Source: Acanthamoeba castellanii str. Neff
Taxonomy: Eukaryota > Discosea > Longamoebia > Acanthamoebidae
Assembly (NCBI RefSeq): GCF_000313135.1
Contig: NW_004457268.1
Location: forward strand, 566,319-630,318
Reading direction: 5' to 3'
DNA: 64,000 bases
This document shows, in pieces, positions 6,694 to 55,882 of the stretch (position 1 is its first letter; the number at the start of each line of letters is the position of its first letter). The notes beneath the pieces are model-generated. The model had not been told where the DNA came from. It saw nothing but the letters and a program-made list of their open reading frames with translations, and did not search any database. A program made the position numbers and the translations under genes.

Positions 6694-9600
6694 TCATGCC
6701 AAAGCGATGAAGCTGCCATCGGCATCGTCGTCGCCCACCTGCTGGTCGAAGAAGGTGACCAGTTCGTCGGCGCGCGGTCGCCTCTCGGGCTGGGCGTGCC
6801 AGCACTTCTTCATCACCTTCTTGAACTCGGGCGGGCAGTCGTTGGGGATCTGGGGCCGCTTGCCCTCGAGCACGTCGAGCGACACGCCCATGAAGTTGCG
6901 CCCAGCGTAGGGCTCCTTGCGCGTGGCCACCTGCCACATGATGATGCCGAACGAGAACACGTCGGCGCGCTCGTCGTACTTCTCGCCGCGCAGCACCTCG
7001 GGCGCCGTCCAGCAGGGCGTGCCGCAGCGGGTCATGGTGGCGTTCTCCTCCTTGATGCGCGCGAACCCGAAGTCGGCCACCTTCACGTTCATGTTCTCGT
7101 CCACCTTGTGTGTCGTGTCAGCACAACACACGCGCAAACACGACGTGGGGAACGCTGGCGTACGAGGAGGTTGGAGGGCTTGAGGTCGCGATGCACGATG
7201 ACCGGGTGGAGCGAGTGCAGGTAGTTGATGCCCAGCGCGGCCGATCGCAGCAGCCGCAGCTTGTGCTTCCAGGCCAGCTTGACGGAGTGGTTGGCCAGGA
7301 TGTCCCTAAGGCAGCCCTGCTTCATGAACTCAGTCACGATGCACAGATTCGGCTTCTTCACGCACGCTCCTGTTAACATATAACGTTAATATCAATGTTA
7401 ACCAGTTTAATGATAATAAATCAAATGAAAAATATACACATACATCAGAGAGGAATAACGAACCGATGAAGAGGACGATGTTGGGGTGGTGAAGCTCCGA
7501 CAGGAAGGCCATCTCGGCGCGGAACTCGAGCATGCGCCGCTCGTCGAGCTTCTGCTTGATGAACCGCTTGACCGCCACCTCGACGCCCTTCCACTTGCCG
7601 CGGTAGACCGCCCCGTAGGAACCGAGGCCCACCTGACGGCCCACCTGGATCTCGTGGAAGTCAATGATCCAGCGGCACAGGTTGGCCGACGTGAGGAAGG
7701 TGTCCTCCTTGAACATCATGCCCTCGCCCACCGCCGTCTGCAGCTCCAGCCCGCCGCCGCCGCCGCCCGCGTTCCCGCTCGTGGCCGCCTTGGGCTGGCC
7801 GTCGCCGCTGTTGTCATCCCTGTTGTTGGGCGGATCGCTGTCCTCGTCACCCGTCACGCCGCCGAAGAAACGACCCTCGAGCCCCGCCACCTTAAGCTCG
7901 TACAGCTTGGCCCCTAGTACCCCCCGTTCCGCCGAAAATCGTTTAAATCCATAAATAAATAATATGGATGAATAAAGAACTTGTTAATAAATAAGAAAAG
8001 GCTTTGGGTACCTCGGGGCGCGTCAGGCATCTCGAACCGGCCCAGACACACAACGCGGAGGTTGTCCTTCAAGCCGACGTCCGTGCCGAGCTTGGCGTGG
8101 GCGGCGTGACTGAGCACGATCTGGCCGCCGTGGGTCATGGCCGTGATGCGGGCCGCGGCGTTCACCACCGGCCCGATGTACTCCACCCGCCGCGTCATCG
8201 GGTCGCGCACCGCCTTGGGCGTGCCCACGTGCACCCCCATCCGCACCCGCAGGCCCTTGTACACCACACTGACCACCATCAACTCGCTGGGTCAGCGATG
8301 ATGGTGAAGAAGAGCGAAGAGCGAAGAGCGAAGAGCGAAGAGGAAGAGAGAAGAGAGAAGAAGGCGTACCGATCGTCGGTGTCGCCCCACTCGATGGAGG
8401 CGCCCGGGTGGTCGAGCAGGGCCTCAGGCCAGTCGACCTTGAGCAGGGCCTGCTGCACGTCGGCGCACCAGGCCAGCGCGTCGCTCGCCTGCTGGAAGGC
8501 CATGCAGAACGAGCCCTCGCCGCTGTTGCGGTCGCGGATGAACACCACCTCGTAGCCCCGGTACCGCTTGAGCGCCGCGCGCAGGACCTCGTTGTGCAGG
8601 ATCGTCGCGTCGCGCATGGCCTCGGCGTTGAACTCCCAGAGCGACGCGGCGCGCGTGATGTCGGTGAACACGATCGCCACCTCGCCCTTGGGCGCACGCG
8701 CCAGCGCAGTGCCGGCCGCCGCTGCTGACGAGTCCTTGCGTGACGCGCCCGGACTCGAACCCGAGCCCGAGCCTGATGACGTGGCGGACTGTGAGGGGCC
8801 GCCGGTGGAGGTCCACGAGCCCCAAGTGCGGGCCAGGTGCGGCTCGCCTCCCGACGATGATGAGGTGGAGGACATAGTCGACGTGGCGCCGGCCGAGAGC
8901 TTGGAGTCGCCGTGCATGGAGGAGAGGCGTGTCATGATCTCGAGGAAGGTGGGGCGGATGGTGGGGTCGTGGTGCCAGCAGCTGGTGATCAGCTCCTCGA
9001 ACTCGGGCGGGCAGCCCGATGGGGCCAGGTCGGGCAGCGGCGGTCGCGCTCCGTCCCTTATCACCGCCACAGCCACCGCCGCGGGGCTGCCTCGAGATCA
9101 CAAGTCAGCTATGAATGACACGCACACCGCAGCCGCACACACGGCACACACACGACACAACACACGATTGGTGGGTGACGGACCTGAGGCCGGCGTAGGG
9201 CTGCTCGCGGGTAAGGAGCTCCCATAGGATGATGCCGAAGGAGTAGACGTCGGCCAAGATGAGATTGACGTCGGGCGATTCGTTGAGGATCTCCGGCGCC
9301 ATCCAGTGCACGCTGCCCGCCACGTCCTTCGCTGCGTGGCTGTCCTCCTTGAACTTGGTGAGGCCGAAATCGCTCACCTACGTTGGGTAGGAGTCATCAT
9401 TTGTCGACAACAAGTGCCATCAAGTTGGTGCGTGTGCGGTTGTGCGAGTGCGTGTTAGTGTGAGCCAACTGAGCACCTTGACGTTCCACTTGCTGTCGAG
9501 GAGCAGATTGAGCGACTTGAGATCGCGGTGCACGATGCCTGGCAGGCCACACATCAGAGTGAGTGCAGGGTTTGGGGGAGAAAGAAGAACGAAGAACGAA

Positions 9601-55600: not shown

Positions 55601-55882
55601 CGTGTGGCGGTGTGTTCAGGAAGTGGCGCCGGTACCTGACGTCGTCACGGGTGAAGAGGTAGGACGGTGTCCATATTTTGAAGACGGAGACGGCGTTGGG
55701 CGTGCCCGCACCGTATAGCTCCACGCCGTACCCCAGGGCTGCGCGCAAAGTGAGGAAAGCAAGCAGCTTTAGTGAACAAACTTTCACCGGCTTCGCGAAG
55801 CAGGCACTGATCACGTACCTTGCCCCAGGCAGACCACCACGACTAGAGCGCCAAAGGCCACAGAAGTTCGCGTGGCAACCAT
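49610..55882 (-). CDS. Receptor copy C: dual PstS-like ectodomain, EGF-like, TM, TKL kinase, cyclase domain, TKL kinase
   Basis: Start [20 protein letters not shown] is a signal peptide. PstS-like domain 1: [60 protein letters not shown]. Domain 2: [43 protein letters not shown]-like: [46 protein letters not shown]. Kinase 1: [36 protein letters not shown], all complete. Cyclase: [18 protein letters not shown] to [19 protein letters not shown]. Kinase 2: [27 protein letters not shown]. Its glycine-rich loop and beta-3 lysine fall in a 21-N gap at 50395. Four single-base losses relative to copy A lie within 49660-49905; corrected reading ends [12 protein letters not shown] at 49610. Those may be sequencing errors; otherwise the gene appears intact. 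Confidence 0.82.
50395..50415. other. Assembly gap (21 N) in kinase 2 of receptor C
   Basis: The N run replaces the region between ELQTAV and [10 protein letters not shown]. In copy A, 55 residues (about 165 bases), including GLGSYGAV and VAVK, lie between these points. The gap is therefore shorter than the missing sequence. Confidence 0.9.

What the first reader, a model, noticed from the sequence alone, without database searches (positions are those of the whole stretch)
6694..55882. A receptor family with PstS-like x2 / EGF / TM / TKL kinase / cyclase / TKL kinase architecture
Three copies (6694-13410, 43930-48323, 49610-55882), all on the minus strand, share one domain order. The sequence shows the signal peptide, WNDxRI PstS signatures twice, an EGF-like Cys module, a TM helix, two complete TKL-type kinase motif sets, and a class III cyclase domain between them. 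A bacterial nutrient-binding fold outside coupled to kinase-cyclase-kinase inside suggests a phosphate- or anion-sensing receptor linked to cyclic-nucleotide and phosphorylation signalling. Such a lineage-specific sensor is the best candidate here for an undescribed system.
Basis: partly seen in the sequence, partly recalled or inferred. Interest (0 to 1): 0.88.

Follow-up and report, generated by a model that had tools for sequence, protein, structure and literature searches.

The report
PstS-like receptors of a known family
These amoeba genes belong to an already reported family of membrane receptors with two kinases and a cyclase inside; outside they wear two copies of a bacterial phosphate-catching fold that has lost the key phosphate-gripping motif, so what they sense remains open.

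Summary
Confirmed for one of three genes. Copy 1 (6694-13410, minus) gives an intact 1675-aa spliced model: signal peptide, two PstS-type domains, EGF-like module, TM, TKL kinase, class III cyclase, TKL kinase. Copy 3 keeps the order, but a 21-N gap and frame changes interrupt its second kinase. Copy 2 is a degraded fragment without kinase 2. The family is not undescribed: genome papers count 67 (66) such receptors in A. castellanii and 43 in Physarum, and note them in giant viruses; the main texts I searched do not name the ectodomain. It is two PstS domains, but the phosphate-site SGT motif is absent from 34 of 34 first and 32 of 33 second domains examined, though some other site residues persist. 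The exception is a sister receptor with one kinase and no cyclase. A metagenomic PstS-cyclase group keeps the motif in 10 of 11. In nine genes the PstS domains are far more variable (31-35% mean identity) than the kinases (68-69%). Best reading: a chemoreceptor repertoire on a repurposed phosphate-binding fold, signalling through TKL kinases and a cyclase of unpredictable product. Ligand unknown; phosphate unlikely for these copies.

The parts
6694..13410 (-). Copy 1, intact receptor gene, 19 exons, 1675 aa (spliced model)
   Evidence: Pfam; splice model not checked by RNA, but two single-protein viral homologues align over 99% of the ectodomain region
13356..13410 (-). Copy 1 signal-peptide exon
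   Evidence: hydrophobic N-terminus read from sequence
11755..13230 (-). Copy 1 first PstS-like domain (about aa 20-338, several exons; bounds approximate)
   Evidence: phosphate-site columns
10450..11752 (-). Copy 1 second PstS-like domain (about aa 340-690; bounds approximate)
   Evidence: profile of the second repeats matches that of the first, E 1.2e-30
10340..10429 (-). Copy 1 EGF-like Cys module (aa 698-727)
   Evidence: PF07974 E 0.02, below cut-off; EGF models score better in P0002 but also below cut-off; six-Cys spacing read from sequence
10195..10300 (-). Copy 1 single TM helix (about aa 741-775)
   Evidence: hydrophobic stretch read from the model; no TM predictor was run
8926..10156 (-). 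Copy 1 TKL-type kinase 1 (aa 789-1045)
8027..8692 (-). Copy 1 class III cyclase domain (aa 1123-1317)
   Evidence: closest solved chains trypanosome receptor adenylate cyclases GRESAG 4.3/4.1, E 5.9e-24 and 1.7e-21
6730..7671 (-). Copy 1 TKL-type kinase 2 (about aa 1403-1655)
43930..48323 (-). Copy 2, truncated and degraded paralogue: signal peptide, two PstS-like domains (a stretch missing in the first), EGF with in-frame stop, TM, kinase-1 N-lobe, first half of cyclase
49610..55784 (-). Copy 3, same order; kinase 2 interrupted by N gap and frame changes; start codon not assigned
50395..50415 (.). Assembly gap (21 N) at the kinase-2 P-loop of copy 3

Best explanation
Copy 1, probably copy 3, and many of their paralogues are single-pass cell-surface receptors. 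Two PstS-type clamshell domains and an EGF-like stalk form the ectodomain. Inside, a TKL kinase, a class III cyclase and a second TKL kinase form the output. A ligand other than free phosphate, bound in the first or second clamshell or between them, would change the ectodomain and the packing of dimers, switching the kinases and the cyclase. Variable ectodomains on a conserved interior point to a repertoire of chemoreceptors. Shown: domain make-up, homology to PstS, absence of the SGT phosphate motif, variability contrast, single-polypeptide coding in viral and intron-poor amoebal relatives. Inferred: surface location, ligand binding, dimer-based activation, enzymatic activity and product. Copy 2 is probably not a working receptor.
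For: Pfam and PDB matches. Matches to all six domain models (E <= 0.01; the two PBP models and the two kinase models cross-match) in 12 of the 14 loci fetched for having a cyclase (one of the 12 is copy 3) and in 2 of 2 fetched for a PBP hit; at over 60% coverage of each domain in one model set, 8 of these 16 loci plus copy 1 hold both PBP domains, both kinases and the cyclase, and 12 of 16 plus copy 1 hold PBP2 and kinase 1. Full-length relatives in single proteins of a pithovirus and a mimivirus, 37% identity over 99% of the ectodomain region. Single open frames of 1741 aa (C99) and 1647 aa (C109) running from ectodomain into kinase. SGT motif in 0 of 34 PBP1 and 1 of 33 PBP2 genes. In 9 genes with all five domains, mean pairwise identity PBP1 31%, PBP2 35%, kinase 1 69%, cyclase 52%, kinase 2 68%. 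First metal Asp, Asn and Arg of the cyclase kept in copy 1 (residue roles recalled).
Against: No expression, localisation, ligand or activity data. Some phosphate-site residues persist: Ser38 equivalent in 21 of 32 and Ser139 in 23 of 33 second domains, Asp56 in 15 of 26 first domains. The cyclase lacks the usual purine-selecting lysine (Val instead) and carries an insertion beside the second metal position. The structure prediction failed (mean pLDDT 31.9), so no cleft was seen. Variability could reflect relaxed constraint; no selection test was run. Two of 14 cyclase loci showed no ectodomain.
Confidence: 0.55

Rival explanations
1. Phosphate (or close oxyanion) receptor: clamshell closure on phosphate drives kinase and cyclase output.
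For: PstS is the closest solved family; a sister gene (C48) keeps an RFDGSGTT site in its second domain; metagenomic PstS-cyclase proteins keep an SGTT-type motif in 10 of 11; single site residues persist (Asp56 equivalent in 15 of 26 first domains, Ser38 in 21 of 32 and Ser139 in 23 of 33 second domains).
Against: In copies 1, 2 and 3 neither domain has SGT; Arg135 equivalent kept in 2 of 29 first and 1 of 33 second domains, Thr10 in 0 of 19 and 2 of 32.
Confidence: 0.12
2. The PstS-like pair no longer binds a small ligand and serves as a protein-contact or adhesion surface (dimer partner, prey surface), with the same interior output.
For: Loss of the SGT motif while fold landmarks such as WxD and SWP are invariant in the four-row alignments; EGF-like module next to it.
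Against: Nothing direct; tandem clamshells usually bind small molecules (recalled).
Confidence: 0.22
3. The cyclase is a pseudo-enzyme and the receptors signal by phosphorylation only, the cyclase fold acting as dimeriser or nucleotide sensor.
For: Purine-selecting lysine replaced by Val and an insertion after the second metal position in copy 1; Asn kept in 18 of 24 rows and the first metal motif found in 19 of 24; one sister has no cyclase.
Against: First metal Asp, Asn and Arg are kept in copy 1, whose domain matches trypanosome adenylate cyclases over 209 residues, E 5.9e-24.
Confidence: 0.25
4. The genes are giant-virus genes captured by the amoeba.
For: Same architecture in a pithovirus and a mimivirus.
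Against: The window genes are intron-rich; the two viral second domains pair inside an 11-row cluster otherwise of amoebal ones, 100/100 support, but the tree is unrooted and the kinase trees are poorly resolved; this genome has 54 cyclase places, while the number per virus was not examined.
Confidence: 0.07

Closest known systems
Acanthamoeba castellanii kinase-cyclase-kinase receptors (67 nucleotidyl cyclases, Clarke et al. 2013, PMC4053784; 66 of 67 in Schaap et al. 2015, PMC4758236)
   Same: Receptor domain, one TM helix, cyclase flanked by two kinases
   Different: No difference found; the words searched for in the main texts (periplasmic, PBP in both; PstS in the first; phosphate-binding in the second) do not name the ectodomain; supplements not seen
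Giant-virus 'putative serine/threonine-protein kinase/receptor' (mimivirus P0003) and Pithovirus mammoth kinase (P0002)
   Same: All domains in one protein, SGT motif also absent from the ectodomain
   Different: Viral; 37% ectodomain identity
Bacterial PstS phosphate-binding proteins
   Same: Near full-length alignment of each domain
   Different: SGT motif and Arg135 equivalent lost in the window copies, tandem, fused to a receptor
Trypanosome receptor-type adenylate cyclases (GRESAG 4.1/4.3)
   Same: Closest solved relatives of the cyclase domain
   Different: Lysine replaced, insertion, two kinases added
Unnamed metagenomic PstS-TM-cyclase proteins (P0004, P0123-P0132)
   Same: PstS ectodomain on homologous cyclase domains
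   Different: No kinase family in the labels; one clear PstS domain (Pfam, P0004) and at most a weak second; SGTT-type motif in 10 of 11; source organisms not named
Animal natriuretic-peptide receptor guanylate cyclases (recalled, not tested)
   Same: Works-like: periplasmic-binding-type ectodomain, TM, kinase-type domain, cyclase
   Different: Type I binding fold, pseudokinase, no second kinase

Membership tests
Amoebozoan kinase-cyclase-kinase receptor family | Extracellular receptor domain and single TM | tested here: met
   copy 1; TM by hydrophobicity read from sequence only
[quoted passage not shown]
   copy 1; copy 3 with gap and frame changes; copy 2 fails
PstS phosphate-binding proteins | PstS-type sequence over the whole domain | tested here: met
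PstS phosphate-binding proteins | Phosphate-site residues (Thr10, Phe11, Ser38, Asp56, Arg135, Ser139-Gly140-Thr141; roles recalled) | tested here: not met
   SGT and Arg135 gone in the window copies; Asp56 equivalent (first domain of copies 1 and 3) and Ser38, Ser139 equivalents (second domain of copy 1) persist
Class III nucleotidyl cyclase | Two metal Asp, transition-state Asn/Arg and base-selecting residues (recalled) | tested here: inconclusive
   first metal Asp, Asn, Arg kept in copy 1; lysine replaced by Val; second metal region with insertion
TKL protein kinases | TKL-like sequence with P-loop, VAVK, HRD, DFG, APE | tested here: met
   both kinases of copy 1: motifs; nearest solved chains CTR1, then a chain labelled EGFR (9p9u), then MLK and B-Raf (kinase 1) or TAK1 and MLK (kinase 2); best 60 of 435 and of 368 shown, no tree
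Phosphate receptor | Binds phosphate and signals | not testable with these tools
   no binding data

The most novel reading that the evidence does not exclude
Eukaryotes captured bacterial PstS and joined it to a GRESAG-like cyclase as a phosphate receptor, still seen in the metagenomic PstS-cyclase group and, with a kinase instead, in the C48 sister gene. In Acanthamoeba one branch lost the phosphate site, gained two flanking TKL kinases and radiated into dozens of variable chemoreceptors for other ligands, an amoebal counterpart of an odorant-receptor family, which giant viruses then took up, perhaps to rewire host sensing.
Probability: 0.3. Interest if true: 0.75.

Novelty: new member of a known kind. 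Interest (0 to 1): 0.42.

Why it matters
It puts a name (tandem PstS) and a testable negative (no standard phosphate motif) on the outside of a very large receptor family of Acanthamoeba, which has been counted but whose ligand is not given in the passages I read. The C48 sister with the motif intact is a ready-made positive control, so the phosphate question can be settled by a simple binding comparison. The contrast of variable outside and constant inside makes this family a candidate for how a solitary amoeba tells foods and threats apart.

Tried and rejected
Structure prediction of P0001 with a three-row alignment gave mean pLDDT 31.9 and was discarded; no fold search was run. A scan of viral contigs with A3 matched 29 stretches by pattern, none confirmed, so the spread among viruses beyond the two database hits is untested. 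The first gene-finder run chained nearly the whole minus strand into one gene and was replaced. The Pfam search of the genome (33 PBP places) undercounts: several loci without a listed place proved to hold PBP matches. Protein searches scored only the roughly 8,000 candidates sharing most words, so absence of further relatives there means little. Paper searches for PstS, periplasmic or PBP with cyclase, receptor or Acanthamoeba found nothing on the ectodomain; PMC6135880 on Acanthamoeba and giant viruses has no 'cyclase' in its main text (passages only); subscription papers and all supplements are unseen, so absence from print is not shown. Considered and rejected: separate ectodomain and kinase genes (single viral proteins and long amoebal open frames join them).

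Copy 3's kinase-2 frame changes lie beside an assembly gap and may be sequence errors or real damage; this cannot be told here.

Full report
What was checked. The window lies in a 38.4-Mb, 250-contig genome at C235:566319-630318. An A. castellanii Neff receptor protein, P0001, maps to another place of this genome (C61) at 85-98% identity per exon, so the organism is an Acanthamoeba close to, but probably not the same as, Neff. I trained a small gene finder, seeded from copy 1, and ran it on the window; the models are not checked by RNA.

Copy 1 (6694-13410, minus) is intact: 19 exons, 1675 aa, one stop at the end. Pfam finds PBP_like_2 (6.5e-22, two stretches), PK_Tyr_Ser-Thr (3.2e-128, two stretches), Guanylate_cyc (2.1e-11) and, below its cut-off, EGF_2 (0.02). 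Four-row profiles of the first and second ectodomain repeats match solved PstS proteins over almost their whole length, best E 6.7e-29 and 6e-27, and match each other, E 1.2e-30. Of the solved chains shown, both kinases are closest to the TKL kinase CTR1; next comes a chain labelled EGFR (9p9u) and then MLK and B-Raf (kinase 1) or TAK1 and MLK (kinase 2). The cyclase is closest to the trypanosome receptor adenylate cyclases GRESAG 4.3 and 4.1 (5.9e-24, 1.7e-21).

With copy 1 as query, copy 2 has no match for residues 231-259, 875-1120 and 1264-1675 (apart from a second match of its kinase-1 N-lobe by kinase 2), has an in-frame stop in the EGF module and a frame change inside what is one cyclase exon in copy 1, with no N run in that stretch. 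It is a degraded fragment. Copy 3 keeps the order, but a 21-N gap sits on the P-loop of kinase 2 and the C-lobe is spread over successive frames; sequence error beside a gap and real damage cannot be told apart here.

How large the family is here. The genome has 54 exon-level matches to the cyclase family and 33 to PBP_like_2, both lower bounds, and several places can belong to one gene. I fetched about 10 kb around the 14 weakest cyclase places: 12 of 14 show matches to all six domain models (one of the 12 is copy 3); L041 and L049 show no ectodomain. Two more places chosen for a PBP hit both show all six. These are matches at E <= 0.01 and the two PBP and two kinase models cross-match. Asking for over 60% of each domain, 8 of the 16 loci plus copy 1 hold both PBP domains, both kinases and the cyclase, and 12 of 16 plus copy 1 hold PBP2 and kinase 1. 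Of the other 40 cyclase places, only copy 1 and L054 were seen at this length.

Is it one protein? Full-length relatives are single proteins in Pithovirus mammoth (1643 aa) and mimivirus (1651 aa, named 'putative serine/threonine-protein kinase/receptor'), 37% identical over 99% of the ectodomain region. In the amoeba, single open frames of 1741 aa (C99) and 1647 aa (C109) run from ectodomain into kinase.

Is it known? Yes. Clarke et al. 2013 (PMC4053784; outline, abstract and passages seen) report 67 nucleotidyl cyclases with an extracellular receptor domain, one TM helix and a cyclase flanked by two kinases, and note the configuration in giant viruses. Schaap et al. 2015 (PMC4758236; passages and section 27 seen) put 66 of 67 in this family and count 43 in Physarum. 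'Periplasmic' and 'PBP' occur in neither main text, 'PstS' not in the first and 'phosphate-binding' not in the second. Supplements were not available. Precomputed Pfam labels already put PF12849 on P0001-P0003, so the domain is recorded in databases.

Does it bind phosphate? Aligned to E. coli PstS (residue roles recalled), the SGT motif is in 0 of 34 first domains and 1 of 33 second domains; Arg135 equivalents are kept in 2 of 29 and 1 of 33; Thr10 in 0 of 19 and 2 of 32. Other site residues persist: Asp56 equivalent in 15 of 26 first (2 of 32 second) domains, Ser38 in 2 of 21 first and 21 of 32 second, Ser139 in 2 of 34 first and 23 of 33 second, Thr141 in 4 of 34 and 7 of 32 (sets include P0001 of Neff and model-based rows; genes without the column are left out; domain rows covering 120 profile positions or fewer were dropped). 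In copy 1 the first domain keeps the Asp56 equivalent and the second the Ser38 and Ser139 equivalents. The one second domain with the full motif (RFDGSGTT) is in the C48 gene, modelled as PstS-PstS-EGF-TM and a single kinase, no cyclase found. It shows that the alignment would have found the motif had it been there. The two viral proteins also lack SGT in the ectodomain.

Wider relatives. A search with a metagenomic hit (P0004) found 14 proteins at E <= 0.001; 11 (P0004, P0123-P0132) carry PF12849 and PF00211 labels, have a TM-like hydrophobic stretch before the cyclases, and 10 of the 11 keep an SGTT-type motif (P0128 does not). Pfam sees one PstS domain in P0004; a second is at best weak. 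Their cyclases are homologous to copy 1's (best BLAST E 3.8e-17 to 8.3e-25). P0133 (eukprot 'Nk52', recalled to be Chromosphaera perkinsii) has four PBP_like_2 stretches, three such motifs and no cyclase match. None of this is a rooted history, but it fits an ancestral phosphate-type site lost in the amoebal kinase-cyclase-kinase branch.

How it may work. In nine genes with all five domains, mean pairwise identity is 31% and 35% for the PstS domains, 69% and 68% for the kinases and 52% for the cyclase. Constant output with variable input is what a chemoreceptor repertoire would show; relaxed constraint is the dull alternative, though invariant landmarks in four-row alignments (WxD, SWP) argue for a kept fold. 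The cyclase keeps the first metal Asp and the Asn/Arg pair in copy 1, but the lysine of the trypanosome enzymes at the purine-selecting place (role recalled) is Val and a six-residue insertion follows the second metal position in HMMER's alignment. A GEGS stretch recurs at that place in 19 of 24 rows, the first metal motif was found in 19 of 24 and the Asn in 18 of 24 (read by eye). So cyclase activity is plausible but its product cannot be read from sequence.

Viral link. In a tree of 26 second domains the two viral rows pair (100/99) within an 11-row cluster that includes copies 1 and 3 and P0001 (100/100); the kinase trees are poorly resolved and do not firmly pair the viral rows. The second-domain tree fits transfer from amoeba to virus but is unrooted.

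Verdict.

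Noticed in passing
G000:C48:112800-120900 (L055): Sister receptor: PstS-PstS-EGF-TM-kinase, no cyclase found, second PstS domain with a complete phosphate-site motif (RFDGSGTT).
   Followed up: yes
P0004, P0123-P0132 (protein database): Metagenomic PstS-TM-cyclase proteins without kinase labels, SGTT-type motif in 10 of 11; source organisms not named.
   Followed up: partly
P0133 (eukprot Nk52): 2386-aa protein with four PBP_like_2 stretches (three SGTT-type motifs), ephrin-receptor-like repeats and a TRP-like match just below its cut-off, no cyclase match.
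   Followed up: no
G000:C99:142162-151000 (L053), C109:14307-17258: Intron-poor divergent family members with single open frames of 1741 and 1647 aa next to intron-rich relatives.
   Followed up: no
G000:C235:571813-722680: The window copies belong to a looser cluster: further cyclase places on the same contig at about 658.8, 677.3, 708.3 and 715.3 kb.
   Followed up: partly
window 31736-36198, N run 32983-33711: Repetitive gene with strong strand skew (GC skew 0.22 in 32-36 kb) whose N-terminal part matches pAdhesive_15 (E 3.7e-30).
   Followed up: no
window 23773-25513, 3719-6134, 56355-59140: Neighbours: VIT-family transporter, serine carboxypeptidase S28, ITFG2-like protein.
   Followed up: no
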